Below, one piece after another: positions 12,583 through 64,000 of a stretch of DNA of 64,000 bases. The notes under the pieces are model-generated. The model was not told the DNA's origin. It did no database searches and was given only the letters and a program-made list of their open reading frames with translations. The position numbers and the translations under genes are program-made. Source of the DNA: Vandiemenella viatica (taxonomy: Eukaryota > Arthropoda > Insecta > Orthoptera > Morabidae); the NCBI GenBank assembly GCA_031002005.1, contig JARYHS010013630.1, forward strand, positions 238,335,539-238,399,538, read 5' to 3'. The stretch's first letter is position 1; the number at the start of each line of letters is the position of its first letter.

Positions 12583-13924
12583 AATCCGCCATAAAAACCG
12601 GATAGCCAAAGAATGGAAGCTCACGAGAAATCAGGTGACCAGGAGACTACTAAATCGCTTGCAGAGGGATATTAAAGATTCCCTGATTCAACATCGGAAC
12701 CAAGAATGGGAAGCAAGAGTCTCTATGCTCCATCCGGAGGATGGGTCTCTATGGCTTCAAACTAGAAGACTCATCAGGCGAAGGCAGCGGCTCCCCCCAC
12801 TGCACGGCGAAAGAGGCCTAGCAGTCACTCCGGAGGAAAAGGCCAACGCACTGGCTGATGTCTTTGTGAAGAATTTTCGGCCTTCGCAAACTAACGTGGA
12901 CCCCACCCACATCACTGCAGTTCATCGTCGCCTGAGAGTCTATCTCGACGCTGAAGATGACCATCAAATAGATGACATCACCCCGGAAGAGGTAGCCAGC
13001 TACCTATTGAAACTGCACCCACAGAAAGCACCAGGGCGTGACGATATCAGCAACACTCTCCTCAGGCACCTACCACCAGAGGCCTCTGTTCACCTCATCG
13101 CTATCTTCAATGCCATTTTAAGAAGTCAGCATTACCCTCAACTGTGGAAACACGCTATAATTGTGGGTATTCTCAAGACCGGGAAAGACAAACATCTACC
13201 TCAGAACTACAGGCCCATAAGTTTGCTCCCAGCCATTAGCAAAGTGTTCGAACGGCTGTTATTAAAAACGCCTGTCTGCATTCATCGAAAACGCCAACGT
13301 TATTCCAGATCACCAGCTAGGATTTCGACGTGGACACTCCACCACCCAGCAGCTGATGCGGGTTGTAGAAGCAGTGACCCACGCTTTCAACTTCAACAAC
13401 TACAGCGCCATGGTACTTCGACATCTCGCGTGCCTTTGACTCCGTGTGGCATCCGGGGCTTCTGCTCAAGCTCTACGAACAGGGTATCCCGGTGCCATAA
13501 GTGAAGCTACTAAAATCCTACCTCGCCGGCCGGACCTTCAGCGTAAAGGTGGACAAAGCTTACTCCTCTTCCAGGAACATCGAGGCAGGGGTGCCGCAGG
13601 GCTCTGTGCTTAGGCCCGTGCTATACTCTCTTTACACCGCTGACGTTCCGACTAGCAACGGTGTTCTGACAGCTACTTACACCGACGACACCGCGTACTT
13701 GGCCTCCAGCCACAGTAGAGCACTGGCCACCCGACGACTGCAGGAAATCCTCCAAGTAACAGAGGCCTGGGCTAGGAGGTGGCGTATTGATATAAATGCC
13801 ACCAAGACTCAAGCAATTATAGTAACCAAACGACTTGGTGCCCGTCAACTAACTCATCCTGACCCAACACTTCGCCTACATGGTAGAGAAATCCCATGGT
13901 CTATTACGGCACACTACCTGGGGG
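12570..13924 (+). pseudogene. Jockey ORF2 reverse transcriptase, left-arm copy
   Basis: The RT is split over several frames. Readable blocks are KAPGRDDISNTLLRHLP, NYRPISLLPAISKVFERLLL, then FDISRAFDSVWHPG (another frame), EAGVPQGSVLRPVLYSLY and ATYTDDTAYL. The active site is YTDD, where the right-arm copy has the normal YADD. Lesions: an extra A in the AAAAA run near 13,266 (left arm only), a frameshift just before FDISRAFD near 13,412 (both arms), and a TAA stop before KLLKSYLAG at 13,498-13,500 (both arms). The frame runs into the hAT element at 13,925. Confidence 0.88.
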
Positions 13925-14093
13925 CATGGGCGCCGGGAGGGGGGTGCAAGGGGGTGCACTTGCACCCCCCCTGACATCCCAGGTGGCCGTCTGGGCAGTA
14001 GTAGAGCTAAAAAAAAATGGTCGCCCAGCCCGGAAATTTTTGGGCCGATAGCCCTGGTGCACCCCCCTAGAAGCAATCCTGCCGGCGCCCATG
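13925..14093. mobile_element. hAT-type miniature element inside the LINE
   Basis: It has perfect terminal inverted repeats CATGGGCGCCGG and CCGGCGCCCATG, 169 bp overall. It is flanked by CCTGGGGG (13,917-13,924) and CCTGGGGA (14,094-14,101), an 8 bp target duplication with one change. Removing the element and one duplicate restores the LINE reading frame (HYLG followed by MTLDKRLNW). It is shared with the right arm (62,795-62,962). The interior motif GGGCAGTAGTAGAGCTAAAA also occurs in the hAT element at 42,105. Confidence 0.88.
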
Positions 14094-14258
14094 CCTGGGG
14101 ATGACTCTAGACAAAAGACTGAACTGGTGTAGCCACATCAACGAAGGCCGTCGGAGAGCAAGCACCAGGCTCCACAGTCTTTACTCTATCCTGAATAAAG
14201 ATAGCAAGCCAGCCCCTTCAACAGGAGTCAAGATATATACATCTCTCATACGCCCAAT

Positions 14259-16813
14259 AGGGTATTTGACTACTTCTTGAAAATGGTTTTAAATTGTTTA
14301 TTGGTACACCTTATTCACCGAGTGAAGAGATTTTTTGACAAAAGTGCAGTATTTTGCGAAAAATTCAAAGTTAAAATTTAAAGAATTTAAAAGCCCGCCA
14401 AAACGCTCATTTGCTGCCTGGCGCGCGCAACGGCAATCGTGACGTCACCCGTCTGTAAACGCTGCCGCTGTGAATGGAGCGTTTCCTATTACCCAAGTTT
14501 TCAACTATTTTTTATTGTTTGTTGCTGGTTATTTCTTGTTATTAATGAAGGTTCGTTTTGAATATAAAATCAAAAAAAATTGAAAAAGCCTACAGCGGAA
14601 AAATATTGAAAGTAGACGCCTTATTTGTGGACCTAGCTATAGGAACAACCACTGAGTTTTATTCTGTGGAGCTTAAAAATGTGACAACTTCAATTTGATA
14701 TTGCAACAAAGTCACTTACGATTTTCTGTGAATCTCATTTACACCGCAATTTCGTAGAGTAAATGTAATACGTTGTTTAAGGCGAGAATTATTAGGGTTG
14801 GTCCTGAGGTTCGATCCTCGCTTCGGAATATTTTCAGTTGGTTTTCTTTTGTCATTTTCTTTGGATACTAGTTGCTGTTGGTTGCATTACATAATAACTT
14901 TTTCCAGAAAATCCACCAGAAAATCAATTTAATTTTTCTTTTTCTTTTTTCTGAAGGCTTCACAAATTTTTGGATAACAAGCGAATTACAACCATTTGAA
15001 ACAGCCAAAGATGATTTCAAAATGGGAATTGGACGTTACTTGCACACCGGATTTTTTTTTTTTTTTTTTTTTTAAATGAAAATGACTTGCACATTAAAAG
15101 TAATATCGCCTAATAGACGGTTATGTCAAGAAGGTAACCTACAGTTGTATCGTCACGTAAAAATTCCAACGAAAAGTACACAAAGCGTTCCGGAACTGTT
15201 GCAAGATTAGCATGAAATTTCTACATGTGATGTCACTTCTAAAATAAATTCCATTGTTCAAGGCCGTGCACCTGTATTTTTTGCATGATATTCTCTCTCT
15301 GGTAAGTTTGAAAATTAAAACTTTTCATGTATGGTAGCAATTCGTTTCAAACACTTGCATGACGCTTAGCAACTGTTATGAATACTTAGAATAAAAACAT
15401 GGTAGTGCAAATAACAGCAAACAAATACCGAAAAAAATTCACACAAAAAATAATATCCCAACCAAGGTTCTTCGAACGTAAGACGTTCTGAATTCCATTA
15501 CCACTCTTCAATCACGCAGCTATCCTGACACTACTTCTTAATTGCTTCTCTTTATGTTAATGGTGAACACTTCACAGTTTCTTCATGTGATATGAAGTGA
15601 AACGAGGTAGGTAAATGAATAAACAAACAAATTCAGTTTTATTGACAAAAAATATTATTTATCCATAATGTACAATTAAGAAAAATGGCCCACAACATCC
15701 AATTGTTTCGAGCGTGTTGAGTGAGCAGTTAACGCTCTGGTCTCGCATCCGGGAGGACGCCGCACAGTGTGATATTTTCTAAATCTAGAGGAACAAAAGT
15801 CAGTTTTGATAATTGTCTACGCAGGCAAAATAGTTATTTATACTACTCGGAACAAAGGTTTATTTTCAACGAATTCACGCCTAATAGAAAAAATAGTTTG
15901 AACAATGGGCTTCCTGTGATCCACCGAACAAGCGCTTCAGTCGGCCGCGCTAATCCATTGAGTTTGGTCGATGATTACGCTGTATTTCTGCTTGTTAGTA
16001 GTGATTTGTGTGTTGCTATTGCTTTTGGCGAGCTTTAAGGTAAGTTAATGCATGATTTTTCCGTGATACAATAGCATCATTAAAACAGAACGAGATTATT
16101 TTTAATAAAAAAAAAAAAAACTACTGAGCCAATTTCATGTTGAGTTTTAGTTCATTATACCGATCTCTTACTATATTTATTTGAAAGAGCTGCTTATTAG
16201 CTACAAGAAATACCTTAATTTGTTTGCGTATATTTGCGACACCCATACAACTTTTCTTTATTTTCAGCATGACTGCACAAATTTCGCGTACAGAATTTTT
16301 CGACGTATGGTTTGCTAACGCAAAACAATCAATCTCTAACCTTCAATTTAAACATAAATGAGTCCAAATAGAAGCTGTTACATTTTTAAGCTCAGTAGAA
16401 TAAAAGTCGGTTTTTTTTATATAGCCAAACCCACAAATAAGGCGTCTATTTCCTTATTTTTCCGCAGTAGGCTTTTACATAATGTTCTCGATTCTGTATT
16501 AAAAATGAAATTTCATTAATAACAAGAAATGACCAGCAACAAACAATAAAAATAGTTGAAAACTTGGATAATAGGAAACGCTCCATTCCTAGCCGCAGCG
16601 TTTACAGACGTGTGACGTCACTCAAGCGACCACCAATCCTAGACCGTTTTCTGTCACGTGACCAGAGGTAAGAAAAGTATAATTTTTGTTTCGCTTTTTT
16701 TATTAAAAATAATCCACTTTTCTTTTCAAAAATGAAAAAATTAGCTTCCTGAAGCATTAATCTATGAGAATGAGTTCAATTTATAATATTTTTTTAATAT
16801 TGTCAAATCGCCT
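14259..16813. mobile_element. 2.55 kb non-coding DNA transposon with long subterminal inverted repeats
   Basis: The ends AGGGTATTTGAC and GTCAAATCGCCT are inverted repeats (10 of 12). After about 180 bp of diverged sequence, a longer inverted repeat of about 250 bp follows, with landmarks GTGACGTCAC, CGTCTGTAAACGCTGC, GGAGCGTTTCCTATTA and CAAGTTTTCAAC at about 14,440-14,690 and 16,385-16,620. Flanking AT dinucleotides (14,257-14,258 and 16,814-16,815) restore the LINE frame (RPIMEYACPVW) if counted as the target duplication. No transposase is present. The interior has a T-run at 15,051-15,073 and a SINE-head scrap at about 15,720-15,765. I cannot assign the superfamily. It is also in the right arm at 60,062-62,629. 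Confidence 0.75.
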
Positions 16814-17106
16814 ATTATGGAGTATGCATGTCCTGTGTGGGCATACGCCAGCGACAGGCAAATCATAAAACTCCAAATTATTCAAAACAGAGCCCTACAG
16901 AGAGCCTTACACCTCCCGTGCCGGTTCCCCACGGATGCACTCCACGAGGCCCCGGCATACCTAAATTGAAGGATAGATTCCGCCAGCTGGCTGAAAACTT
17001 TTACAATAGCACCAGACAATGCAACAACCCTGCGGTCAACTCGCTTGGAAGCTACGACAACGCCTATGACAGGCATAGAAGACCGCTCAGCATATTAGTA
17101 AACTGA
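16814..17106 (+). pseudogene. Jockey ORF2 C-terminus
   Basis: This continues the LINE after the 2.55 kb insertion, in one open frame reading MEYACPVWAYAS, NRALQRALHLPCRFPTDALHE and LKDRFRQLAENFYN, ending at a stop at 17,104-17,106. This is the usual C-terminal tail of Jockey RTs. About 300 bp of this region (16,907-17,211) is missing from the right arm, where the Harbinger-like array sits. Confidence 0.85.
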
Positions 17107-17212
17107 CACCCAACAAGCAGGCACACCGAAAGTTAAGAGTATTGTAACCCCTTCGTGATGTTGGAGGCAATGTCTACGGACAAATACTCCACCCTCCACC
17201 TGCCTGTAACCT

Positions 17213-17470
17213 AAGGCAGTGAAGGTGCCATGTGTGTGTGCTCTCTGCCTAGAGTTGCTAAGGCTGGTTTACATGCCTCGCTAAGACATAGCCCACTATC
17301 TCTGTTGTAGGTATCAGCCAATCGAATTTCAATCGCTTCTTTGAGTATGGAATCCCAAAAGTATGAGGTCCTAGCCAATATCGTGACGTTGTTGAAGTCA
17401 ACCCTGTGGCCATGGTTGCACACATGCTCGGCAATCGCTGACTTGCAATTCGCGAATACTAGCATTTAAA
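17213..17470 (-). pseudogene. Penelope-like element: tail of GIY-YIG endonuclease domain
   Basis: The minus-strand reading shows CKSAIAEHVCNHGHRVDF, then ILARTSYFWDSILKEAIEIRL and YNRDSGLCLSEACKPAL. This is the conserved C-terminal half of the GIY-YIG endonuclease of Penelope-like retroelements (KSAIAEH, REAIEI and NRDxG are the landmarks). The RT and the GIY-YIG start are absent, so only about 80 residues remain. It has an almost identical counterpart in the right arm at 53,489-53,738. Confidence 0.75.
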
Positions 17471-18604
17471 CATTATTATAAATGGAATGACTTATTCAAA
17501 ACAACGCTTAGGCACATATGACCTGCTAGAAAAAATTATAGTAAGCACCGGTATTATGGATAGTAATGTATCTCCTGGCTCGCAGTTGTTGTGAAACTCT
17601 GTTCGGAATCGAAGTGAAGTCCGGTTATTGCCCTTTAGTTTTATTGTTCAGTCGACGGTGTTATGGGTTAAGTTGTGTTTCACAATATGGTAAGTGAGGG
17701 CAAGTATTGCGGCAGTAATTCTAACTTTATTAGAGGATGCGATTCATCAAAAAATAATTTCTTCAGACGTGTTTTAGCAATTTGCCGCTTTCATGCTTGG
17801 TGTTATTTTAACTGAAAATATTTTTTAAAAATCCCTGCTTTAATTTAATTTCGTGTAGTTACGATGGAGTGACTGCTTCGGTGGCAATTTTCCTACAATC
17901 TCTATTTACGTCTAAAAATCGGCACGCAAAGTTTTTAAACTTACGTGTCACGTTGCAGCCGAAGAAATTATTCCACAGATTTTGCATTTTGCAGAAAATT
18001 CATTATTTTGTACATCTGTCTGCAATAGTTTTTTTATGGTTATGCAGGCTGTTATATCCACCGTCATCCGTTTAGTTTATTAATGTACACAACACAGTAC
18101 ACAGAAACAGTGGGCCAGTGGCACAGCCGACAAAACAAGAAACTAAACAAAAAGTGACCGAGTATGAACGATTAATCCCAAAACAGATGAAGGAATTATC
18201 ACCCGTCCACTGCACATGATCAATTCGGTGGAATGAAGCCGAGCGACGGAAAATTTCCAAGGTTTCGTTCGGATACTATTTTTGTACGTAAAAAGTCAAA
18301 TTTATTACTTTCATATATTTTAGAATACGCCCACGTGGAATATAGTACAAAACTCACTAACAGAGTATGGGTGGCAACCCTATTTTCAATTGCTGCGCCA
18401 AGGAATGCAGTGTCGGCATCGGCTGGCTTCCGTGGGGAGTGCCCTAAATTTAGCAACTGTGTCGACGCAGATACAAGTAAAACCCATTAAGCATTTCACA
18501 ACGTCGCGTGGCCATTAAGCATTTCACAACGTCGCGTGGCCCGCGGCAGAACTGTACAGGGCCATGGCTTCCACCATCTAAACTTAGTCGCAAAGTACCC
18601 TTAT
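17471..18604. other. Non-coding arm DNA
   Basis: It is conserved between both arms. About 130 bp at 17,480-17,610 also occurs a third time in the spacer (38,447-38,575). The small open frames here are preserved on both arms only because the DNA is; none matches a known protein. Confidence 0.6.
18485..18540 (+). repeat. 28 bp tandem duplication, left arm only
   Basis: A unit starting CATTAAGCATTTCACAACG is present twice in direct tandem (18,485-18,512 and 18,513-18,540). The right arm has a single copy at about 52,465-52,500. Confidence 0.85.
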
Positions 18605-19370
18605 GGAGATTTTTGGCTGCATATTAAAGGATGTCTCTTTGTTTGTGCGATGAAGTCTTGAAGTATGCTGACGGTTTTCTGGGTATTGTGTGGATATCTA
18701 TAACTTTGTGGAGGGAATAATGTAAGCGGTTGTGTGTTTGTATGGTGATTTTTGGATGCATCTACGTGAGCTTATCTTTGTACGATGATGTCAATAAGTC
18801 TTGAAGTATGCTGATGGACAGTGGTATGTGGGTCTGTGTGAGAGAGATAATGTCTGCGGTTGGGGTGTCTGTGTGGTGATTTTTGGGTACATGTTAGTAG
18901 GCGCGTATTTGCTTGTGCGGTGATTTAAAAAATTTTGATGTATATCTGTGTGCGGGGTTGTGTCGGCAGGCCTGTGTTAGTGGAAAAATGCCTGTGCAAC
19001 GTGAATGGATGTTTACGAGTGCTTGTGGATGTTTGTGTATCTAAATGTGTATGTGTTGACGTATGTTATTGGGTGGCTGTGTGAGATTATATAATTATGT
19101 GATTCTGGGGAATTATTTCTTTTTTTGTGTACGAGTGTGTTTTGTGATTACATATGTTGGTTGATATCTGTGTGTGGTGTATGCCTGTATGTATGTAGTT
19201 TGGTCCACAAGTTGAGTTTATATTGCTAGGTACCTGTTTCCGATTATGTGGCGATGTGTTTCGGTGTGTGTTAAGTTGGTGTTTGTTTGGGTCCGTGAAC
19301 GCCTGTGCCTGATTGTATCATATCTGGTATGTGTAGGCGAGCTAGTGTTTGAACATGTATGGTTCGGTGT
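18605..19370 (+). repeat. GT-rich degenerate tandem repeat, about 135 bp period
   Basis: GATTTTTGG recurs at about 18,607, 18,748 and 18,879, each followed by a TTTGT-CGATGA-GTCTTGAAGTATGCTGA block in at least the first two units. Later units dissolve into GTGTGTTTG-type sequence. Strand composition is strongly skewed, with few Cs on the plus strand. The counterpart at about 51,600-52,375 is the CA-rich reverse complement. Confidence 0.65.
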
Positions 19371-22300
19371 GGACTCCAGGTTTTCATGGTTCTTGAAGAC
19401 TGTCTTGGCAAAGGAGAAGGACAGATGACAACATTCGTGGAGGGAATTGACTCACAATCACAACGAAGAAATTAATTATAGTATCAGCATCCCTACAAGC
19501 AGGCAACATTTTCAACATTAACGATGTAGAGGAAAATAGCTTGGACGAACAAAATGGCTACCTATGATGGAGGTGGTGTGTGGAAATATCTTAGTGTCAA
19601 CGCAGATAGTTGAGAACAGAGATGAAAGGAATTTAAGCTGTCAGTTTACAATACCTTTAAAAAAATTATTTAAAGTTTTACGTATTTTTAATTTACAAAG
19701 TTGTGCAGATTATAAAATCGAAGTGGAAAACGAAGTTTCTATGGGACATTCCAAAATTACTAAACGATTAAAGCTCTGAAACTCTTCACAATATTTATTC
19801 TGCAGCATTAGACATGTGCCATAGAAAATGTACAAAAATTGGTTTTCATATAGGAGAACGTTGTTTTTTGTAAGATAACGGGTTACAATAGTCAACCTTG
19901 AATAAAATAAACGGGAATTGAAATTTTAACAAGACTGAATGTTTATGCCATGGTAAAAATGTAAAAAATAATCTTGAGTGCTGTTTTATCATGACCTGTT
20001 AGGTATTTAAATATCTTAGCAGCGTTTTGTTTCAGCATTGGAAACTTATCTAGAGATACAATATCGAACAGATCAACAAAGATCAGTCATTCAAAAGATA
20101 AATGCTCTGCTTTGGTATGCAACTACATTGTTAAATTACCACTCTTGGTGTAAAAGTTAAGAATTTACTGAGACGAACAGAATAAACAGCAGGAAGCGTT
20201 AGGTAGCTTTATCGCCAGGGTCTGCACTGGCTGGCCGCGCTTATTGCTGTCGGGGGTAACAGAACGAATTGGTCGGGTAGAAGCTTTGAACGCTCCAGAG
20301 GAAGCCAGGATATCGGGCCCAAGCCACATGTCTGTTATCTACTGACCTCTGGCAGCCTTCACATGTTCATTTTACAAAAAATACCGTGTCCGTAATTAAC
20401 AGATTAAACTTCAACTACGGATGAAAATACAGAAAACTCCTCCTGACAATGCGATGAATAATGAGAGGCCGACACTAACCACCTTTTTTCTGGATGATGC
20501 AGACATTCCCTTAAAACATCTAAAACACTGGAGAATACGCTGTGTTGTTAATATCTCAATGCTCTGGAAAGCGTTTGAGTCTACCAGGGGATGGCACGGT
20601 TTATCCAAATAATGTTACCGAATTGAGTATTCTGGCAATTCATTTCTTCGGAGTTGCATAACTGTTTAATGATCTGACCATGAAAGTTCTCTGGCCATTA
20701 CAGGCACTGTGACCTAAGATTACATTATGAAAACCCAGCCTCACTAAAAAGAAGCAATGTGATGCTTTCGAAACAAGCAGGAATTTTTTTAAATTTTGCA
20801 GAGGGTACTTTAAGGGTCAAATACAAGTCAAGTTTGTATTTCAGAAAGTTCGAGTTTACGACCTTTGAATAATTATTCGATAGCGCGATCGTCCATGTCC
20901 GTGTTTAATACCTTCGTCTATTAATACTTCTGACTTCTGAGTTGTTCAAGCTCAAGAGATTTTAGACACTATAAGAGTGAAACACAGGTCAGTTTCGTAA
21001 TTGGTCAGATCAGGTCAACCTGTCATAATCTTTGACCCTAAAAACTCTGTTCTTGACCCGTAACGATTCGCGAAAACGGTCACGGGCTTACACTAGTCAA
21101 TAATAAACGCTTTACTGCATTCACCTGATACAGTTATTTGCATTTGTGGACAGAATAGGATCCGGTTTCCTCCTGAATGCCATGCCTAAACTTGGATCAC
21201 CTACCCTGCAAGTTCAACCTGAGAGCCTGAGAGGCTCCGTTACCCTGTAAGATTACAGAGTTATTAGAAGCCAATTGACTGTGGGAACCGTCAGCTAGGA
21301 AAAGCGCAGGAAGTTATTAAATATCGAAACGAGCGGCCACAACAGCAAGCATTCTCTAATTGATAAGTTCCTGCCTGGAAACTGTTGTCGACAGACTGGA
21401 AGTTTAATGCAGTAGCTTCTGCTGCCTCTCCAGACGTTTGCAAACGGAAGAGAAAGTACGGTTACCAGTTTGAAATGCTGTGCAGATTGTGATTACGTAA
21501 TGATTCTTACCGTTAACAACCGCTCCAACATCACACCCGTTGTGCACACAAGGAAAAGCTTCTCGAGCCAACTTCGCGTCTACGATTCTGTCCTTAGAAT
21601 TCACTTGTGCCTCTGCAACAAGACTGAGTAAACCAAGCCCTGTTCTAACGATTTCCACAGACCCTGTCATGAAAGCGACACACAAATTATCTCTAGCAGA
21701 TCAATATGTCTATGAAAAAATATGTTACTTGGACAGCCGTAGTGATGTTACACTCGTCCGTGTGACGTTAGCGCTTTAATTTTTTGCTTGTCGCCATCGG
21801 AACAGGAAATTCAAATTTTGGCAGGAGGTTGCACTTCCTCGGCCAAACCCTCCCCTCAGAAACGGTGATAGTTATATTTATCCTGCGATAATATTTAAGT
21901 AAATGTTCCTACTGTGTCTTCAAAACCACTGTGCACAAAGTGAATGGTGCGCTGCCCGGGAAAGGCAACTGATATTCCCAAACTAAAATTAAGTCCTCCG
22001 CTTTTGCAACTGACGATAGCGGGATGGACAGATTGCAACCTGCGACGAGCTCCGATCCGTGTCAACACTTCTACATAGACAAAAGAACGTCAGATACTGT
22101 GGCTCCTCATCCTCAGTCGTCACTGGAATTTGATGTATAATCACAACGAGCGCCGATTCATATATCGCAAAAGTGCTTCAAGGTCGCACGATGTGTTACA
22201 GATTGCCAGTAATTAACATAACCGAAAAAGGTACTCCTTGACAATGGACTAAACCATGAGAGATTCTTAAAGTTAAAATAAAAAATCAATGCCAGCACAA

Positions 22301-22584
22301 TACAAATATCCCCTACTAACTTTTGCAGTGGAAAATCCTAAATTCTTTAGTCCCAATACTAGCAAAAGTGATAAATTCACTAAAGCTTCTTTATTCTCTA
22401 TCTTACCACAGAAAATAAAATGTTATCTACGAAAGCCTACAAACTGAAATCCAATAAATAACCACTTCACTCAGTGAAACAATTTTCTTATTAGGATTTC
22501 GTAACTAAAGATGATTGACAAAATAGTGTATGCTCTTGCAGTGCAGAATTGTAAATTGTCAGTTTTATTTTTAATAGCGCTTTA
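19371..22584. other. Non-coding arm DNA
   Basis: It is paired throughout with about 46,110-51,600 of the right arm, except for the block at 46,460-48,790. I recognise no protein, TIR or RNA gene. The conserved short frames (20,421-20,612 and 21,540-21,779) differ between arms by replacement changes and stops, as expected of non-coding DNA. Confidence 0.6.
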
Positions 22585-22805
22585 CGCCTTGTTGACGTGG
22601 GAGTCATTAGAGGCGGGATGGGACTGGAGACAAGGAACTGGAAGGAACTCGGCCATGGCCTTTAGAAGGAAGCATCCCGGCATTCGCTGGAGTGGTTTGG
22701 GGAAACCATGGAAAACCCAAATCTGGATGCCCGGACGGGGATTCTAACCGGCGTCTTTCCGAATGCGAGGCCAGAACGTTAAACACTCACCAACCACGAT
22801 CGGTG
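22585..22805 (-). repeat. tRNA-derived SINE (left arm copy)
   Basis: This is the reverse complement of the 1,389 family: GCCATGGCC, CCCGGCATTCGC, CATGG, CATCCGGGCA-type blocks, then a mutated B box (GGATTCTAACC in this orientation) and the A-box side near 22,780. It pairs with 45,865-46,095. Confidence 0.85.
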
Positions 22806-23729
22806 GAAATTGTCGAAGTTATTCACATTTACTAAAATAGTGAATGATTTTCTTTTGTGGAAACCGTTTACACATGCACCAGTTAGGATATCTGGAAAGC
22901 GTATTCATATGTAGTAATAAACATTGGATATTACATATTAGCAGTTAACATTCGAAATTGAACACACTAATGGCATGTTAAATAACTAACCGGTAATCAG
23001 TGGCTGGTAATATCTATTTATCAATGATTATAAGTACTGTCCCACATTCCCGAAACTTTTTTCACTTGCGATCAAAGCGAGCATATCTAATGTAATCCAA
23101 CCTCAACACTTGCACTGCCTATATCTAATGTGCATTACAATTCTGTGAAGCTTAGATTAAGAGAAGAAATTATTATGAAAATTGCTCCAGCAATCAACAT
23201 CCATATTGATGCCCTTTGTCAATTCAGAAAATATAAATATTCTATGTTCTATGTTAATTTTTATATTCAACAACAGTATACATTAATAACAATACTGTTT
23301 ACTGAAATAAGCACTCTAACCTTTTTTGTGACCTATTTTCTATCGCAGCGACAGCTTAACCTAAAGAGTTCTTGTAGTCATATATTTTCCGGATATAATT
23401 CAGTAAGTTTCTAATACTTAATAACTCATTTTAATAACTGATTTCATCACACTTTTCCCAGGCTTTGGACTGGCTTAGTGATTGAAATGCACGTATCATA
23501 CAATCTTTTGAGGCATGTTTAAAATCAGCTTGAATTCAGCTTCGTCAATATTTATTTATTTACATATTTACGCTGTCTCTTTATTTACATTATTTGCATT
23601 TTTTTCTTTTTGTGTGCGTGTGTTAAGAAAGCAGGTCTAGCCCAGATTTTTTAAGTATGATATCGTTTTCAAACAAGATGTAATATCACCTACTGTACGA
23701 ATGACACGAAAGTAATAAGACCCTAAACA

Positions 23730-24087
23730 GATGAGCTGTGCTGGATACTCAGGGTATAATTTTTCTTGGAATTTTCAACTGCAGGTAGGCGAGGGCAGGT
23801 ATAACTACTCACCGAGTTGATGAGCTGTACTGGATACTCAGGGTATCATTTTTCTTGGAAATCTCAACTGCAGGTAGGCGAGGGCAGGTATAACTTACCC
23901 ACCGAGTTGATGAGCTGTACTGGATACTCAGGGTATCATTTTTCTTGGAATTCTCAACTGCAGGTAGGCGAGGGCAGGTATAACTACCCACCGAGTTGAT
24001 GAGCTGTACTGGATACTCAGGGTATAATTTTTCTTGGAATTCTCAACTGCTGGTAGGCGGGGGCAGGTATAACTACCCACCGAGTTT
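23730..24087 (+). repeat. 89 bp minisatellite, 4 units
   Basis: Units start GATGAGCTGTACTGGATACT at 23,730, 23,819, 23,909 and 23,998 (periods 89, 90, 89) and end CACCGAGTT. It forms the inner end of the left arm. The right arm carries about 11 units of the same repeat next to the assembly gap. Confidence 0.95.
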
Positions 24088-24279
24088 GGGTTGTGTGATT
24101 TTGTCATATATCCAGCGTCTCTACCACATCGGAAAATAATATGTCGCTTCCCATCTTATAAATGCCCAGTTTTTTTCTACCTGAACCGTCTTGCTCTGAA
24201 GGATGTCTGATTGGAAACGAAGCTGCTTGTGCTGCTTAACAGCGTCATAGTGTAAGCAATTGATATAATACTAGTTTTC

Positions 24280-25670: not shown

Positions 25671-25751
25671 TTTTCTTCTGAGCGTGAGATTTCAGGTTTG
25701 GGGAAACTTGATTTTGACAGGGGAGTTCCGAACTTAGCCGAGAAGCACACG

Positions 25752-25758
<7 letters not shown>

Positions 25759-25784
<26 letters not shown>

Positions 25785-25978: not shown

Positions 25979-26071
25979 CATTGTAGGGGTTATTCAAAAC
26001 CATGTCGCGGACCGAATTGCCTAGCCCGAAGGGCCGCACTTGGCCCGCGGGCCGTACTTTCCCCATCACTG

Positions 26072-53488: not shown

Positions 53489-53738
53489 ATGCTACTTTTC
53501 GCGAATTGCAAGTCAGCGATTGCCGAGCATGTGTGCAACCATGGCCACAGGGTTGACTTCAACAACGTCACGATATTGGCTAGGACCTCATACTTTTGGG
53601 ATTCCATACTCAAAGAAGCGATTGAAATTCGATTGGCTGATACCTACAACAGAGATAGTGGGCTATGTCTTAGCGAGGCATGTAAACCAGCGTTAGCAAC
53701 TCTAGGCAGAGAGCACACACACATGGCACCTTCACTGC
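53489..53738 (+). pseudogene. Penelope GIY-YIG tail (right arm copy)
   Basis: Counterpart of 17,213-17,470 with one visible residue change near the start (MLLFANCKSAIAEH against MLVFANCKSAIAEH). It stops at the Harbinger-like array, whose TTA target duplication (53,740-53,742) abuts its last codons. Confidence 0.75.
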
Positions 53739-54236
53739 CTTAAGGTAGCCACACACGTGGAGGCCGGGCCGCAGGGGAAACGGACCGCAGGGATTTCATC
53801 GAAGTGGCGCTGCACACACACGGGGGGTTAAAATCCTCAAGGGTTTCTCAGTCTCAGAGTTGGCTTCACGATGGCAGCATCCGATGATGTTCACGCATTG
53901 GCTGCTGTTACGATTTTCTTTATTGAATCTGTCACAGTGCTTGCTACCTCTCTCTAAGCTGCCTAGTAAAACTTGAAGCAGCCTTTTTCTGTAATTCCAT
54001 ATCTTCATAAAAGCTTCCTATCATATTTCAAAAATTTGCCTCGGTTAGCCAGGTGGCTCGAATAATCGGAACTCGGATAACCGGACTTTTACTGTAATTG
54101 ATTTATTCCCATTCGTAAATACATCAACAACATAAAATTAAGTTTAAATGACATAAAAACTAAATTAAAATAATATTAGTTTAAAATCATGTTGTAATTA
54201 ATATAGTTGATCATGTGATGTAAACTCAAATTCAAA

Positions 54237-54530
54237 TCACAAAACATCATTTGCATTATAATTTGATAGAACAATTGCTGCTGTGTCGTTGTTTTGAGGT
54301 AATTTATCAAAATCTGCTGGTGGTTTATAATGATCCTGCTGGTGTTGCTTGAAAAGGTTGTGGGCTGAGACTATTCGATGAGGTTCCTGGATAAAAAAAT
54401 ATCCAGAACTGCTGCCTGCAGAATAGTACAGGCCAGAAGTAGGTAACCATTGCTCACTGTAAGACATTCCTAAACAGCCCATTTCGATTTGAAACAGGGT
54501 GTCATTAATTATTTTTTCTGCTATTAGCAT
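54237..54530 (-). pseudogene. BESS/MADF-like protein tail, unit 1
   Basis: The reading MLIAEKIINDTLFQIEMGCL matches the helical end of BESS/MADF proteins, which in Harbinger elements assist the transposase. A Gln/Asn-rich tail follows (EQWLPTSGLYYS, FKQHQQDHYKP). The longer upstream segment found in unit 4 is separated here by a TTAG-type stop. It has 97 codons. Confidence 0.5.
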
Positions 54531-55246
54531 TTAATTGGTCGGAAGGCCACGTAATTTTATGGCAACGGTTTTGCTAACAACGTCAAAGTGATCTTCTTGC
54601 AGCACGGTTTTTTTTTAATGTTCTTCAGCAAATCACTTCGCAAAGATTCATTTCCTGATGGTTTAATGTTGCTGTTTTTTTTTTTAATATTGATTTTTTT
54701 TATTTTTTTGCATTTGGTTCATTCTCCTTCAATATTTATGCCAGCTTGGCGTAGGTAGCTTCTCGTTTGTTTGTGTCGTTGTATTCCTGGTACTTCAATT
54801 CCTATAGACAGGGCTCACTATCATACATATTTATAAACACGGAACATCACGAAACGGAACATTAGAAACAAAACAGAGAAACAAAATCGCAACACACGCA
54901 GGCACTCGCAAGAAATCCTCGAAGGCCGACTGACCGCAGGAGACACGCTGAGATTCCCACCCTCCCTCCCGGCCTTCGACGAAGTAAAGGCCGCCACACA
55001 CGTGCGGGAAACCCAAGGGATTTGGACGCAAGGGTCACGGCCTTGCGGGATCCCGCACGTGTGTGGGCACTTGCTTGAGGCCGTGGCCGCACCCCAGTGC
55101 GGCCAAATCCCTGCCGAAAAACAATTCTTATTTCCTCGAAGGCCGGGAGGGAGGGTGAGAAGCTCAGCGTGTGTCCTGCGGTCAGTCGGCCTTCCGGGAT
55201 TTCTTGTGAGTGCCTGCATGTGTTGCGACTTTGTTTCTCTGTTTTG

Positions 55247-55963
55247 AATACAAGTTTTCTATAACTTCGAAGTTTTTCTGGATTATGATGGTAATATTTG
55301 TTTAATATACATATAGTAAATTGAGGTTTAAAATTTTTTAGCAAATTTTTTGCTTTATATCGGCTAATGCAAACAATTTCCGTAAAGTTTGCATGTAGTA
55401 AAACATTAGTTTTCTTCCAGAACCATTTCATGTCTCCGTTCAAACTTCCAACATAGGTCCTTTATCATTTCAGTTACTGACTGTAGTTTGCGGTAATTTG
55501 CACAAACAAATTGGGCTGCCCTTTTCTGCGCTACATGTATTTGGTAGTCTACCAGTAATGCAGATCCAATACCATATTATATTAATCAACCAACGGTATG
55601 ACCAAGGTTTTGTACTTAGGTTTCCTGATTTTTCTGGAACATTCCTTCTTCAATCTCTCCAATAGATGCGGACTTGGAAACCTATACCATCAACTTCCCA
55701 ATGTGTATTGCTTATTTGAGTTAAGATGTCAGGAGAATATCTTTGCAACAAGTAATTCTCGTTGTACAACTTTTACCATTCTTTCTGTCTATCTAATAAG
55801 CTAGTTCTATCTGATATTAATCTTTACCGTTGTTCCATGTCGATCTGATGAACTAAATATCCTGTATTTGTTCAATCATCTGTGTTTTTGGTATTAATCA
55901 ACATTGTGTCATCCGCAACGAGCTTATCTTCTAACCGAAAGGAGACAATCCTACGACATTGTT
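55247..55963 (-). pseudogene. CR1-like LINE RT fragment inside unit 2
   Basis: On the minus strand, LVADDTMLI near 55,920 matches the RT active site. Further on, VDYQIHVAQKRAAQFVCANY and SVTEMIKDLCW (about 55,530-55,440) match the C-terminal QRRAARFV and SSVTEMLxxLxW motifs of CR1-type LINEs. The two motifs are closer than in a full RT and several stops intervene, so the copy is deleted internally. About 5 bp of unit 2 is lost at the junction. Confidence 0.6.
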
Positions 55964-56343
55964 AATGTTCCGTTTGGTGATGTTCCGTGTTTATAAATAT
56001 GTATGATAGTGAGCCCTGTCTAAAGGAATTGAAGTACCAGGAATACAACGACACAAACAAACGAGAAGCTACCTACGCCAAGCTGGCATAAATATTGAAG
56101 GAGAATGAACCAAATGCAAAAAAATAAAAAGAATCAATATTAAAAAAAAAAAAAACAGCAACATTAAACCATCAGGAAATGAATCTTTGCGAAGTGATTT
56201 GCTGAAGAACATTAAAAAAAAAACCGTGTTGCAAGAAGATCACTTTGACGTTGTTAGCAAAACCGTTGCCATAAAATTACGTGGCCTTCCGACCAATCAA
56301 ATGCTAATAAAAAATAATTAATGACACCCTGTTTCAAATCGAA

Positions 56344-56589
56344 ATGGGCTGTTTAGGAATGTCTTACAGTGAGCAATGGTTACCTACTTCTGGCCTGTAC
56401 TATTCTGCAGGCAGCAGTTCTGGATATTTTTTTATCCAGGAACCTCATCGAATAGTCTCAGCCCACAACCTTTTCAAGCAACACCAGCAGGATCATTATA
56501 AACCATCAGCAGATTTTGATAAATTACCTCAAAACAACGACACAGCAGCAATTGTTCTATCAAATTATAATGCAAATGATGTTATGTGA
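56344..56589 (+). pseudogene. BESS/MADF-like protein tail, unit 2
   Basis: Same protein tail as in units 1, 3 and 4, read from the plus strand because unit 2 is inverted. The upstream IAEKIIND segment is broken by a frameshift in an A-run near 56,310, so the frame begins at MGCLGMSYSEQW. Confidence 0.5.
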
Positions 56590-57227
56590 TTTGAATTTGA
56601 GTTTACATTACATGATCAACTATATTAATTACAACATGATTTTAAACTAATATTATTTTAATTTAGTTTTTATGTCATTTAAACTTAATTTTATGTTGTT
56701 GATGTATTTACGAATGGGAATAAATCAATTACAGTAAAAGTCCGGTTATCCGAGTTCCGATTATTCGAGCCACCTGGTTAACCGAGGCAAATTTTTGAAA
56801 TATGATAGGAAGCTTTTATGAAGATATGGAACTACAGAAAAAGGCTGCTTCAAGTTTTACTAGGCAGCTTAGAGAGAGGTAGCAAGCACTGTGACAGATT
56901 CAATAAAGAAAATCTTAACAGCAGCCAATGCGTGAACATCATCGGATGCTGCCATCGTGAAGCCAACTGTGAGACTGAGAAACCCTTGAGGATTTGAACC
57001 CCCCGTGTGTGTGCAGCGCCACTTCGATGAAATCCCTGCGGTCCGTTTCCCCTGCGGCCCGGCCTCCACGTGTGTGGCTACCTTAAGAATTGTTTTCGGT
57101 GGGGAATTGGCCGCACTGGGGTGCGGCCACGGCCTCAAGCAAGTGCCCACACACGTGCGGGATCCCGCAAGGCCGTGACCATTGCGTCCAAATCCCTTGG
57201 GTTTCCCGCACGTGTGTGGCGGCCTTA

Positions 57228-58614
57228 AGGTAGCCACACACGTGGAGGCCGGGCCGCAGGGGAAACGGACCGCAGGGATTTCATCGAAGTGGCGCTGCAC
57301 ACACACGGGGGGTTAAAATCCTCAAGGGTTTCTCAGTCTCAGAGTTGGATTCACGATGGCAGCATCCGATGATGTTCACGCATTGGCTGCTGTTACGATT
57401 TTCTTTATTGAATCTGTCACAGTGCTTGCTACCTCTCTCTAAGCTGCCTAGTAAAACTTGAAGCAGCCTTTTTCTGTAGTTCCATATCTTCATAAAAGCT
57501 TCCTATCATATTTCAAAAATTTGCCTCGGTTAACCAGGTGGCTCGAATAATCGGAACTCGGATAACCGGACTTTTACTGTAATTGATTTATTCCCATTCG
57601 TAAATACATCAACAACATAAAATTAAGTTTAAATGACATAAAAACTAAATTAAAATAATATTAGTTTAAAATCATGTTGTAATTAATATAGTTGATCATG
57701 TGATGTAAACTCAAATTCAAATCACATAACATCATTTGCATTATAATTTGATAGAACAATTGCTGCTGTGTCGTTGTTTTGAGGTAATTTATCAAAATTT
57801 GCTGATGGTTTATAATGATCCTGCTGGTGTTGCTTGAAAAGGTTGTGGGCTGAGACTATTCGATGAGGTTCCTGGATAAAAAAATATCCAGAACTGCTGC
57901 CTGCAGAATAGTACAGGCCAGAAGTAGGTAACCATTGCTCACTGTAAGACATTCCTAAACAGCCCATTTCGATTTGAAACAGGGTGTCATTAATTATTTT
58001 TTCTGCTATTAGCATTTAATTGGTCGGAAGGCCACGTAATTTTATGGCAACGGTTTTGCTAACAACGTCAAAGTGATCTTCTTGCAGCACGGTTTTTTTT
58101 TAATGTTCTTCAGCAAATCACTTCGCAAAGATTCATTTCCTGATGGTTTAATGTTGCTGTTTTTTTTTTTTAATATTGATTTTTTTTATTTTTTTGCATT
58201 TGGTTCATTCTCCTTCAATATTTATGCCAGCTTGGCGTAGGTAGCTTCTCGTTTGTTTGTGTCGTTGTATTCCTGGTACTTCAATTCCTATAGACAGGGC
58301 TCACTATCATACATATTTATAAACACGGAACATCACGAAACGGAACATTAGAAACAAAACAGAGAAACAAAATCGCAACACACGCAGGCACTCGCAAGAA
58401 ATCCTCGAAGGCCGACTGACCGCAGGAGACACGCTGAGATTCCCACCCTCCCATCCCGGCCTTCGACGAAGTAAGAATTGTTTTTCGGTGGGGAATTGGC
58501 CGCACTGGGGTGCGGCCACGGCCTCAAGCAAGTGCCCACACACGTGCGGGATCCCGCAAGGCCGTGACCATTGCGTCCAAATCCCTTGGGTTTCCCGCAC
58601 GTGTGTGGCGGCCT
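57228..58614 (+). mobile_element. Harbinger-like unit 3
   Basis: This is a full-length unit directly after unit 1, joined through TTAAGG, so the two share junction bases and lack a separate target duplication. Its 3' end abuts unit 4 without the first six bases of that unit. The tandem layout therefore probably arose by recombination between copies. Confidence 0.85.
57722..58015 (-). pseudogene. BESS/MADF-like protein tail, unit 3
   Basis: 97 codons, differing from unit 1 by a few residues (HYKPSANF against HYKPPADF, NANDVM against NANDVL). A TAA ahead of MLIAEK interrupts the longer frame present in unit 4. Confidence 0.5.
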
Positions 58615-59980
58615 CCACACACGTGGAGGCCGGGCCGCAGGGGAAACGGACCGCAGGGATTTCATCGAAGTGGCGCTGCACACACACGGGGGGTTAAAAT
58701 CCTCAAGGGTTTCAGAGTTGGATTCACGATGGCAGCATCCGATGATGTTCACGCATTGGCTGCTGTTACGATTTTCTTTATTGAATCTGTCACAGTGCTA
58801 CCTCTCTCTAAGCTGCCTAGTAAAACTTGAAGCAGCCTTTTTCTGTAGTTCCATATCTTCATAAAAGCTTCCTATCATATTTCAAAAATTTGCCTCGGTT
58901 AACCAGGTGGCTCGAATAATCGGAACTCGGATAACCGGACTTTTACTGTAATTGATTTATTCCCATTCGTAAATACATCAACAACATAAAATTAAGTTTA
59001 AATGACATAAAAACTAAATTAAAATAATATTAGTTTAAAATCATGTTGTAATTAATATAGTTGATCATGTGATGTAAACTCAAATTCAAATCACATAACA
59101 TCATTTGCATTATAATTTGATAGAACAATTGCTGCTGTGTCGTTGTTTTGAGGTAATTTATCAAAATTTGCTGATGGTTTATAATGATCCTGCTGGTGTT
59201 GCTTGAAAAGGTTGTGGGCTGAGACTATTCGATGAGGTTCCTGGATAAAAAAATATCCAGAACTGCTGCCTGCAGAATAGTACAGGCCAGAAGTAGGTAA
59301 CCATTGCTCACTGTAAGACATTCCTAAACAGCCCATTTCGATTTGAAACAGGGTGTCATTAATTATTTTTTCTGCTATTAGCATTTGATTGGTCGGAAGG
59401 CCACGTAATTTTATGGCAACGGTTTTGCTAACAACGTCAAAGTGATCTTCTTGCAGCACGGTTTTTTTTAATGTTCTTCAGCAAATCACTTCACAAAGAT
59501 TCATTTCCTGATGGTTTAATGTTGCTGTTTTTTTTAATATTGATTCTTTTTAATTTTTTTTGCATTTGGTTCATTCTCCTTCAATATTTATGCCAGCTTG
59601 GCGTAGGTAGCTTCTCGTTTGTTTGTGTCGTTGTATTCCTGGTACTTCAATTCCTATAGACATGGCTCACTATCATACATATTTATAAACACGGAACATC
59701 ACCAAACGGAACATTAGAAACAAAACAGAGAAACAAAGTCGCAACACATGCAGGCACCCACAAGAAACCATCGAAGGCCGACTGACCGCAGGACACACGC
59801 TGAGCTTCTCACCCTCCCTCCCGGCCTTCGAGGAAATGAAGAATTGTTTTTCGGCAGGGATTTGGCCGCACTGGGGTGCGGCCACGGCCTCAAGCAAGTG
59901 CCCACACACGTGCGGGATCCCGCAAGGCCGTGACCCTTGCGTCCAAATCCCTTGGGTTTCCCGCACGTGTGTGGCGGCCT
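58615..59980 (+). mobile_element. Harbinger-like unit 4
   Basis: It lacks the first AGGTAG but is otherwise complete, ending GTGGCGGCCT, then TTA at 59,981-59,983. It has the least broken coding tail of the four. Confidence 0.85.
59091..59459 (-). CDS. BESS/MADF-like C-terminal protein, unit 4 (longest)
   Basis: 122 codons: HFDVVSKTVAIKLRGLPTNQ, then LIAEKIINDTLFQIEMGCL, then a polar tail ending NANDVM. The pattern FxxxVxxxLRxLPxxQxxxAEKxIxxxLFxxxxG is that of the C-terminal BESS-type dimerisation helix of MADF/Myb-SANT proteins. The DNA-binding MADF/SANT part is missing, so this is a remnant ORF whose translation is doubtful. It is also possible that an upstream exon exists in an autonomous relative. 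Confidence 0.5.
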   Translation of the reverse strand: MLQEDHFDVVSKTVAIKLRGLPTNQMLIAEKIINDTLFQIEMGCLGMSYSEQWLPTSGLYYSAGSSSGYFFIQEPHRIVSAHNLFKQHQQDHYKPSANFDKLPQNNDTAAIVLSNYNANDVM

Positions 59981-59983
59981 TTA

Positions 59984-60061
59984 GGCTCTCTGTAGGGCTC
60001 TGTTTTGAATAATTTGGAGTTTTCTGATTTGCCTGTCGCTGGCGTATGCCCACACAGGATT
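59984..60061 (-). pseudogene. Jockey ORF2 C-terminal scrap (right arm)
   Basis: Reverse complement of 16,830-16,906, coding CPVWAYASDRQ and IQNRALQRA. It ends where the Harbinger-like array starts. About 15 bp next to the 2.55 kb element (TTATGGAGTATGCATG side) is also missing. Confidence 0.85.
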
Positions 60062-62629
60062 AGGCTATTTGACAATATTAAAAAAATATTATAAATTGAA
60101 CTCATTCTCATAGATTAATGCTTCAGGAAGCTAATTTTTTCAATTTTGAAAAGAAAAGTGGATTATTTTTAATAAAAAAAGTGAAACAAAAATTATACTT
60201 TTCTTACCTCTGGTCACGTGACAGAAAACGCTCTAGGATTGGTGGTCGCTTGAGTGACGTCACACGTCTGTAAACGCTGCGGCTAGGAATGGAGCGTTTC
60301 CTATTATCCAAGTTTTCAACTATTTTTATTGTTTGTTGCTGGTCATTTCTTGTTATTAATGAAATTTCATTTTTAATACAGAATCGAGAACATTATGTAA
60401 AAGCCTACTGCGGAAAAATAAGGAAATAGACGCCTTATTTGTGGGTTTGGCTATAGAAAAAAAAAACCGACTTTTATTCTACTGAGCTTAAAAATGTAAC
60501 AGCTTCTATTTGGACTCATTTATATTTAAATTGAAAGTTAGAGATTGATTGTTTTGCGTTAGCAAACCATACGTCGAAAAATTCTGTACGCGAAATTTGT
60601 GCAGTCATGCTGAAAATAAAGAAAAGTTGTATGAGTGTCGCAAATATACGCAAACAAATTAAGGTATTTCTTGTAGCTAATAAGCAGCTCTTTCAAATAA
60701 ATATAGTAAGATATCGGTATAATGAACTAAAACTCAACATGAAATTGGCTCAGTAGTTTTTTTTTATTATTAAAAATAATCCCGTTCTGTTTTAATGATG
60801 CTATTGTATCACGGAAAAATCATGCATTAACTTACCTTAAAGCTCGCCAAAAGTAATAGCAACACACCTATCACTACTAACAAGCAGAAATACAGCGTAA
60901 TCATCGACCAAACTCAATGGATTAGCGCGGCCGACTGAAGCGCTTGTTCAGTGGATCACAGGAAGCCCATTGTTCAAACTATTTTTTCTATTAGGCGTGA
61001 ATTCGTTGAAAATAAACCTTTGTTCCGAGTAGTATGGTTCATCTACTTTGAATATAAATAACTATTTTGCCTGCGTAGACAATTATCAAAACTGACTTTT
61101 GTTCCTCTAGATTTAGAAAATATCACACTGTGCGGCGTCCTCCCGGATGCGAGACCAGAGCGTTAACTGCTCACTCAACACGCTCGGAACAACTGGATGT
61201 TGTGGGCCATTTTTCTTAATTGTAGATTATGGATAAATAATATTTTTTGTCAATAAAACTGAATTTGTTTGTTTATTCATTTACCTACCTCGTTTCACTT
61301 CATATCACATGAAGAAACTGTGAAGTGTTCACCATTAACATAAAGAGAAGCAATTAAGAAGTAGTGTCAAGATAGCTGCGTGATTGAAGAGTGGTAATGG
61401 AATTCATAACGTCTTACGTTCGAAGAACCTTGGTTGGGATATTATTTTTTGTGTGAATTTTTTTCGGTATTTGTTTGCTGTTATTTGCACTACCATGTTT
61501 TTATTCTAAGTATTCATAATAGTTGCTAAGCGTCATGCAAGTGTTTGAAACGAATTGCTACCATACATGAAAAGTTTTAATTTTCAAACTTACCAGAGAG
61601 AGAATATCATGCAAAAAATACAGGTGCACGGCCTTGAACAATGGAATTTATTTTAGAAGTGACATCACATGTAGAAATTTCATGCTAATCTTGCAACAGT
61701 TCCGGAACGCTTTGTGTACTTTTCGTTGGAATTTTTACGTGACGATACAACTGTAGGTTACCTTCTTGACATAACCGTCTATTAGGCGATATTTACTTTT
61801 AATGTGCAAGTCATTTTCATTAAAAAAAAAAAAAAATCCGGTGTGCAAGTAACGTCCAATTCCCATTTTGAAATCTTCTTTGGCTGTTTCAAATGGTTGT
61901 AATTCGCTTGTTATCCAAAAATTTGTGAAGCCTTCAGAAAAAAGAAAAGAAAAATTAAATTGATTTTCTGGTGGATTTTATGGAAAAAATTATTATATAA
62001 TGCAACCAACAGCAACTAGTATCCAAAGAAAATGACAAAAGAAAACCAACTGAAAATATTCCGAAGCGAAGATCGAACCTCAGGACCAACCCTAATAATT
62101 CTCGCCTTAAACAACGTATTACATTTACTCTACGAAATTGCGGTGTAAATGAGATTCACAGAAAATCGTAAGTGACTTTGTTGCAATATCAAATTGAAGT
62201 TGTCACATTTTTAAGCTCCACAGAATAAAACTCAGTGGTTGTTTCTATAGCTAGGTCCACAAATAAGGCGTCTACTTTCAATATTTTTCCGCTGTAGGCT
62301 TTTTCAAATTTTTTTCGATTTTATATTCAAAACGAACCTTCATTAATAACAAGAAATAACCAGCAACAAACAATAAAAAATAGTTGAAAACTTGGGTAAT
62401 AGGAAACGCTCCATTCACAGCGGCAGCGTTTACAGACGGGTGACGTCACGATTGCCGTTGCGCGCACCAGGCAGCAAATGAGCGTTTTGGCGGGCTTTTA
62501 AATTCTTTAAATTTTAACTTTGAATTTTTCACAAAATAATGCACTTTTGTCAAAAAATCTCTTCACTCGGTGAATAAGGTGTACCAATAAACAATTTAAA
62601 CCCATTTTCAAGAAGTAGTCAAATACCCT
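60062..62629. mobile_element. 2.55 kb long-TIR element (right arm copy)
   Basis: Counterpart of 14,259-16,813. Ends AGGCTATTTGAC and GTCAAATACCCT. The left end has one extra change relative to the left-arm copy. The internal SINE-head scrap is retained near 61,135-61,185. Confidence 0.85.
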
Positions 62630-62794
62630 ATTGGGCGTATGAGAGATATATATATCTTGACTCCTGTTGAAGGGGCTGGCTTGTTATCTTTATTCAGGAT
62701 AGAGTAAAGACTGTGGAGCCTGGTGCTTGCTCTCCGACGGCCTTCGTTGATGTGGCTACACCAGTTCAGTCTTTTGTCTAGAGTCATCCCCAGG
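62630..62794 (-). pseudogene. Jockey ORF2 segment between the two nested elements
   Basis: Reverse complement of 14,094-14,258, coding MTLDKRLNWCSHI and KIYTSLIRPI in the minus direction. Confidence 0.85.
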
Positions 62795-62962
62795 CATGGG
62801 CGCCGGCAGGATTGCTTCTAGGGGGGTGCACCAGGGCTATCGGCCCAAAAATTTCCGGGCTGGGCGACCATTTTTTTTAGCTCTACTACTGCCCAGACGG
62901 CCACCTGGGATGTCAGGGGGGGTGCAAGTGCACCCCCTTGCACCCCCCTCCCGGCGCCCATG
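62795..62962. mobile_element. hAT miniature element (right arm copy)
   Basis: CATGGGCGCCGG and CCGGCGCCCATG ends as at 13,925. The flanking duplication is less well kept (CCCCAGG on both sides). Confidence 0.88.
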
Positions 62963-64000
62963 CCCCCAGGGAGTGTGCCGTAATGGACCATGGGATTTCT
63001 CTACCATGTAGGCGAAGTGTTGGGTCAGGATGAGTTGGTTGACGGGCACCAAGTCGTTTGGTTAGTATAATTGCTTGAGTCTTGGTGGCATTTATATCAA
63101 TACGCCACCTCCTAGCCCAGGCCTCTGTTACTTGGAGGATTTCCTGCAGTCGTCGGGTGGCTACTGTGCTCTACTGTGGCTGGAGGCCAAGTACGCGGTG
63201 TCGTCAGCGTAAGTAGCTGTCAGAACACCGTTGCTAGTCGGAACGTCAGCGGTGTAAAGAGAGTATAGCACGGGCCCAAGCACAGAGCCCTGCGGCACCC
63301 CTGCCTCGATGTTCCTGGTAGAGGAGTAAGCTTTGTCCACCTTTACGCTGAAGGTCCGGCCGGCGAGGTAGGATTTTAGTAGCTTCACTTATGGCCCCGG
63401 GATACCCTGTTCGTAGAGCTTGAGCAGAAGCCCCGGATGCCACACGGAGTCAAAGGTACGCGAGATGTCGAAGTACCATGGCGCTGTAGTTGTTGAAGTT
63501 GAAACCGTGGGTCACTGCTTCTACAACCCGCATCAGCTGCTGGGTGGTGGAGTGTCCACGTCGAAATCCTAGCTGGTGATCTGGAATAACGTTGGCGTTT
63601 TCGATGAATGCAGACAGGCGTTTTAATAACAGCCGTTCGAACACTTTGCTAATGGCTGGGAGCAAACTTATGGGCCTGTAGTTCTGAGGTAGATGTTTGT
63701 CTTTCCCGGTCTTGAGAATACCCACAATTATAGCGTGTTTCCACAGTTGAGGGTAATGCTGACTTCTTAAAATGGCATTGAAGATAGCGATGAGGTGAAC
63801 AGAGGCCTCTGGTGGTAGGTGCCTGAGGAGAGTGTTGCTGATATCGTCACGCCCTGGTGCTTTCTGTGGGTGCAGTTTCAATAGGTAGCTGGCTACCTCT
63901 TCCGGGATGATGTCATCTATTTGATGGTCATCTTCAGCGTCGAGATAGACTGTCAGGCGACGATGAACTGCAGTGATGTGGGTGGGGTCCACGTAAGTTT
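62963..64000 (-). pseudogene. Jockey ORF2 reverse transcriptase, right-arm copy, runs off window
   Basis: Minus-strand blocks: KAPGRDDISNTLLRHLP, NYRPISLLPAISKVFERLLL and KRLSAFIENANVIPDHQLGF in one frame (intact where the left copy is shifted), then the shared frameshift before FDISRAFD near 63,475, the shared TAA before KLLKSYL near 63,390, EAGVPQGSVLGPVLYSLY and the active site YADDTAYL. A right-arm-specific 2 bp difference (AGCACAGTAGCC) near 63,160 breaks the frame after SSHSRA. Confidence 0.88.

What the first reader, a model, noticed from the sequence alone, without database searches (positions are those of the whole stretch)
12880..64000. Giant inverted repeat: 11 kb arms around a 20 kb spacer
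The left arm (12,880-24,087) and right arm (43,931 to beyond 64,000) are reverse complements over at least 11 kb, with every nested element in matching order. Either this is a large genomic palindrome, which would be prone to hairpin formation and gene conversion, or the right contig is an alternate haplotype scaffolded in reverse. The exact 1,000-N gap at the arm border fits the second reading; the many structural differences fit either.
Basis: partly seen in the sequence, partly recalled or inferred. Interest (0 to 1): 0.8.

Follow-up and report, generated by a model that had tools for sequence, protein, structure and literature searches.

The report
Allelic contig probably scaffolded backwards
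The two mirror-image stretches are real in this arthropod-like sequence, but they are best explained as the two parental versions of one repeat-rich locus, joined head to head across a gap by the assembly rather than a giant natural palindrome.

Summary
The inverted homology is real and far beyond chance: left contig 12,888-24,086 is the reverse complement of the right contig 43,931-64,000 in three collinear blocks, with 195 substitutions in 10,814 aligned bases (1.8%). The picture of 11-kb arms around a 20-kb spacer is not established, because no genuine arm boundary lies in the window. The inner edge of the right arm is the first base after the 1,000-N gap, inside an 89-bp tandem array; the outer edge is only the window end. 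The right arm is 20 kb, with about 9.2 kb the left lacks. Differences are evenly spread, without conversion-like identical patches.

Most likely the right contig is the other allele of 12,888-24,086, broken in its longer array (at least 11 copies against 4) and placed beside its partner in reverse: a heterotype false duplication, a well-described assembly error. A real inverted segmental duplication is not excluded, because no reads and no sequence outside the window were available. The locus is rich in transposons. Interest is low. Depth over both copies, and reads crossing 24,086 and 43,931, would decide.

The parts
12888..24086 (+). Left copy (L): part of the left contig, homologous to the reverse complement of the right contig
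   Evidence: Self-BLAST blocks and block alignments
43931..64000 (-). Right copy (R): all of the right contig visible in the window, homologous to L in reverse except for private pieces
   Evidence: the match begins at the first base after the gap, as an array monomer
42931..43930 (.). Assembly gap of exactly 1,000 N between left and right contig
23730..24086 (+). 89-bp tandem array, 4.0 copies; the left contig then runs on into other sequence
43931..44920 (-). The same 89-bp array, at least 11.1 copies, cut off by the contig end; the 30 bases flanking the array on the other side are identical in L and R
46460..48788 (-). About 2.3 kb present in R only; contains a Tc1-like element (46,952-48,387). 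By eye the ends show no terminal inverted repeat and a 2-bp microhomology, so a deletion in L is a fair alternative to an insertion in R
53764..59982 (.). About 6.2 kb present in R only: cluster of four ~1.1-1.25-kb repeat units in mixed orientation, in place of L 16,908-17,192
16908..17192 (+). 285 bp present in L only; reads by eye as the end of a jockey-type LINE ORF2 (no Pfam match for the ORF there)
24087..42930 (.). So-called spacer: left-contig sequence whose partner, if any, is not in the window
   Evidence: Only short dispersed matches (70-228 bp, E up to 1e-10) to the rest of the window

Best explanation
Heterotype false duplication (haplotig misjoin). The right contig is the second allele of the locus 12,888-24,086. 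In that allele the 89-bp array is longer and the assembly stopped inside it. The allele was not purged, and scaffolding set it next to its partner in reverse orientation across a fixed-size 1,000-N gap. Shown: the reverse homology, the contig end inside the array, the array length difference, about 1.8% substitutions, and private structural differences. Inferred: that the copies are alleles, that the array caused the break, and that scaffolding chose the orientation.
For: (1) In the window the right contig is homologous to L from its first base to its last, apart from private pieces; a real palindrome would need its inner arm edge to fall at the contig end or be hidden in the gap. (2) The contig end lies inside an array with at least 11.1 copies on this side and 4.0 in the left contig, which reads through it. 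(3) The copies are separated by an N gap of a round size. 1,000-N gaps from Hi-C joins are documented for the oat assemblies in PMC6874827 (passages seen). [quoted passage not shown] (4) Substitutions of 1.28%, 1.90% and 2.67% per block, evenly spread, longest identical run no longer than random (P 0.528, 0.536, 0.596 in 3 of 3 blocks), transitions/transversions 97/83. (5) Private structural differences lie on a shared nested background.
Against: Divergence and structural differences of this size also fit a non-converting segmental duplication, so points (4) and (5) do not separate the two. Contigs also break at the edges of true repeats, so point (1) is strong but not proof. Reverse orientation is allowed, not predicted: one scheme in PMC8081667 describes tandem copies with a gap (passage seen), and the word 'inverted' does not occur in the main text of PMC9516828. 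A gap of 1,000 N is not specific to Hi-C. No read depth, k-mers or flanking sequence could be examined, and the heterozygosity of the species is unknown.
Confidence: 0.8

Rival explanations
1. A real inverted segmental duplication: two copies of at least 11 kb, head to head about 20 kb apart on one chromosome, that have diverged without exchanging sequence.
For: High-identity inverse homology with matching order of shared elements; private structural differences fit two independently evolving loci.
Against: No arm boundary is seen. The only inner edge is a contig end within a tandem array and the copies are separated by an N gap.
Confidence: 0.12
2. A palindrome kept alike by arm-to-arm gene conversion, as on mammalian Y and X chromosomes.
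For: Only the geometry.
Against: Arms differ by about 1.8% substitutions plus kilobase-scale differences, with no patches of identity (longest runs 283, 234 and 132 against random means of 300, 248 and 145). Abstracts of PMC3723533 and PMC8981503 (search listing) give above 99.9% and above 99% arm identity for such palindromes.
Confidence: 0.02
3. A paralogous copy from elsewhere in the genome, wrongly placed here by the scaffolder because of shared repeats.
For: The locus is rich in transposons, which can mislead scaffolding (general knowledge).
Against: The homology includes a specific nested arrangement and the array flank (30 of 30 bases identical), so it is a copy of the locus, not just of one element; the allelic reading needs fewer steps.
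Confidence: 0.05
4. A missed-adapter or foldback artefact of one molecule (false palindromic read).
For: Reverse-complement geometry; PMC9516828 mentions false chimeric PacBio palindromic sequence (passage seen).
Against: The two copies differ by 195 substitutions in 10,814 bases and by 2.3-kb and 6.2-kb pieces, so they come from molecules of different sequence.
Confidence: 0.01

Closest known systems
Heterotype false duplication / haplotig retained in a primary assembly (PMC9516828, PMC8081667; passages seen)
   Same: Two diverged copies of one locus in a single scaffold, separated by an assembly gap, one copy ending at the gap
   Different: Here the second copy is in reverse orientation; half depth and heterozygous k-mers could not be checked
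Gene-converting palindromes of mammalian sex chromosomes (PMC3723533, PMC8981503; abstracts in search listing)
   Same: Large inverted copies about a central interval
   Different: Those have over 99% or 99.9% arm identity; here about 98.2% counting substitutions only, large private differences and no conversion-like patches
Inverted segmental duplication (general class, recalled)
   Same: Divergence and shared nested elements would fit
   Different: No boundary of the duplicated segment is visible; copies are separated by a gap

Membership tests
Heterotype false duplication | Both copies in one assembly, separated by an assembly gap | tested here: met
   1,000-N gap at 42,931-43,930 between the copies
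Heterotype false duplication | Homology of the second contig runs up to its contig end, with no independent boundary | tested here: met
   Homology starts at 43,931, inside the shared array; the other end of the right contig is outside the window
Heterotype false duplication | Divergence in the range of alleles | tested here: inconclusive
   195/10,814 substitutions; plausible for an outbred arthropod (recalled), but the heterozygosity of this species is unknown
Heterotype false duplication | Haploid read depth and heterozygous k-mers on both copies | not testable with these tools
   No reads available
Gene-converting palindrome | Arm identity near 99-99.9% | tested here: not met
   Substitutions 1.28-2.67% per block plus large private pieces
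Gene-converting palindrome | Patches of identity from conversion tracts | tested here: not met
   Longest identical runs no longer than random in 3 of 3 blocks
Gene-converting palindrome | Contiguous spacer joining both arms | tested here: inconclusive
   The spacer is joined by sequence to the left copy only; an N gap lies before the right copy, which neither shows nor excludes a join
Inverted segmental duplication | A defined end of the duplicated segment inside assembled sequence | tested here: inconclusive
   Within the window the only ends are a contig end and the window end; ends outside the window could not be looked for
Inverted segmental duplication | Two copies per haploid genome | not testable with these tools
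   No reads or phased assembly; the genome search did not complete

The most novel reading that the evidence does not exclude
A true large inverted duplication in an arthropod whose arms, despite about 98% identity and about 20 kb spacing, escape both gene conversion and deletion and keep collecting private structural changes.
Probability: 0.12. Interest if true: 0.35.

Novelty: not a real feature. Interest (0 to 1): 0.12.

Why it matters
It matters mainly as a warning. A scaffold like this would be read as a palindrome, or as duplicated loci, in copy-number and inversion surveys, and this locus should be flagged for haplotig purging. If the duplication proved real, it would be a natural test of whether long inverted repeats in arthropods can persist without arm-to-arm conversion.

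Tried and rejected
Gene conversion: tested by the spread of differences; no support. Chance similarity: excluded by E = 0 blocks. Single-molecule foldback artefact: excluded by the substitutions and kilobase differences. Arms made only of independent copies of one transposon: rejected, because the shared stretch includes a LINE interrupted at the same place and an array with identical flank in both copies. Host genes: 10 of the 11 ORFs of at least 80 aa listed for 13,980-24,086 were put to Pfam at E 0.1 and none matched; the eleventh (13,853-14,104) and the ORFs private to the right arm, other than the Tc1-like one, were not tested. Structured RNAs: none at Rfam's gathering scores; tRNAs: none by ARAGORN as run, with the bacterial code. 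Species identification: three protein searches gave named relatives that are arthropods in the rows I saw, among many unnamed ones, and no species (lists of 14 and 15 capped at 120 of 314 and 120 of 545). Matching single array monomers between L and R: dropped, because two of the four left monomers were out of register in my script. Literature: the six-term search found no paper; some searches gave listings; a second paper with 1,000 N (PMC7055283, passage seen) did not bear on the gap size here.

Full report
What is in the sequence. A self-comparison of the window finds one large inverse match. The left contig at 12,888-24,086 matches the reverse complement of the right contig in three collinear blocks, with 51 of 3,992, 94 of 4,948 and 50 of 1,874 aligned positions substituted: 195 of 10,814, or 1.8%. 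The same alignments hold 34 small indels (11, 15 and 8). In a realignment that leaves out the array and trims one block edge there are 180 substitutions in 10,440 positions and 33 indels, 19 of them 1 bp and 8 of those in homopolymers of 4 or more. The window holds one N run of exactly 1,000 bases, 42,931-43,930.

What is not in the sequence. No genuine end of either arm is in the window. The outer end at 12,888 is simply the base that pairs with the window's last base. The inner end of the right copy is the first base after the gap, and that base is inside an 89-bp tandem array (43,931-44,920, at least 11.1 copies). The left contig carries the same array with 4.0 copies (23,730-24,086) and then runs on into other sequence. 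The 30 bases flanking the array on the far side are identical in both copies. So 'two arms and a 20-kb spacer' describes where contigs and the window stop, not an anatomy with edges of its own.

How the copies differ. The right copy is 20.07 kb against 11.20 kb. It alone has about 2.3 kb (46,460-48,788) holding a Tc1-like transposase ORF (PF13358, PF01498) and about 6.2 kb (53,764-59,982) with four related units of about 1.1-1.25 kb in mixed orientation. At the latter place the left copy has 285 bp with no significant match in the rest of the window (best E 0.18), which read by eye as the end of a jockey-type LINE ORF2 (no Pfam match; 'jockey-type' is my label, from the domain order). The left copy is thus probably ancestral there and the right derived. 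At the 2.3-kb difference about 490 and 400 bp of other sequence flank the Tc1-like element and the ends show only 2-bp microhomology, so a deletion in the left copy is a fair alternative (sequences; inference).

Alleles or paralogues. Differences are evenly spread: per 250-bp bin the variance-to-mean ratio is 0.85, 1.02 and 1.28, and the longest identical runs (283, 234, 132) are no longer than random placement gives (P 0.528, 0.536, 0.596). This is what two lineages without patchy exchange look like, and it argues against a converting palindrome; mammalian palindromes have over 99% or 99.9% arm identity (abstracts of PMC8981503 and PMC3723533 in the listing). It does not by itself separate alleles from a non-converting duplication. 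What tips the balance is contig structure: the whole visible right contig is a copy, it ends in the array that is longer on its side, and a gap lies between the copies. Published analyses of false duplications describe gap-separated copies of divergent haplotypes (PMC9516828 and PMC8081667, passages seen). A 1,000-N convention for Hi-C joins is on record for the oat assemblies (PMC6874827, passages seen); which method joined these contigs is unknown. The cautions are that contigs also end at the edges of true repeats, that reverse orientation is allowed by the allelic model and not predicted by it, and that an arm edge could be hidden in the gap.

The left contig's end. Its last 70 bases (42,861-42,930) match a LINE endonuclease region at 4,727-4,796 at 90%, so the left contig also stops in a dispersed repeat.

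Where it comes from. The proteins are arthropod-like. The best named relative of the Tc1-like transposase is from the spider Araneus ventricosus (88% identity over 95% of the query), while an unnamed protein matches at 98%. For the RTE-type reverse transcriptase the named relatives listed include Macrosiphum, Diaphorina, Cryptotermes and Schistocerca; for the jockey-type endonuclease, Carabus, Parnassius and Uroleucon. The species was not identified. Of nine ORFs put to Pfam, seven matched, all with domains of the kinds found in transposable elements, some inside the arms and some outside. Of 11 ORFs of at least 80 aa in 13,980-24,086, ten were tested and none matched.

Limits. The verdict rests on contig structure and the pattern of differences: about 0.8 for a reversed haplotig, 0.12 for a real inverted duplication, and the rest for other readings.

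Noticed in passing
46952-48387: Tc1-like element whose transposase ORF lacks about the first 91 residues of the 340-aa relative P0219; an inverted 515-bp copy of the element's own other end (99.4% identical) lies where they would be, giving two nearly identical long ends.
   Followed up: partly
53740-59985: Cluster of four ~1.1-1.25-kb units in mixed orientation, with ends built on CACACACGTG and TTAA at three junctions; perhaps a non-autonomous TTAA-targeting transposon that inserted into itself. Family not determined.
   Followed up: partly
10671-17100: Jockey-type LINE (PRE_C2HC, zinc knuckle, endonuclease, RT) interrupted by eye from about 13,930 to about 16,770 by an insert carrying 260-bp inverted repeats (85% alike); the part within 12,888-16,907 is shared by both copies.
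   Followed up: partly
4627-7479: RTE-type LINE with endonuclease and reverse transcriptase ORFs; the seven best relatives are 55-67% identical and unnamed.
   Followed up: no
32346-32954: ORF with a Mos1-type HTH domain (mariner transposase fragment).
   Followed up: no
964-1567, 22581-22808, 34482-34626, 39305-39532, 45863-46087: Dispersed short repeat family, about 73-88% alike, in both orientations; the second and last places are the same site in the left and right copy.
   Followed up: no
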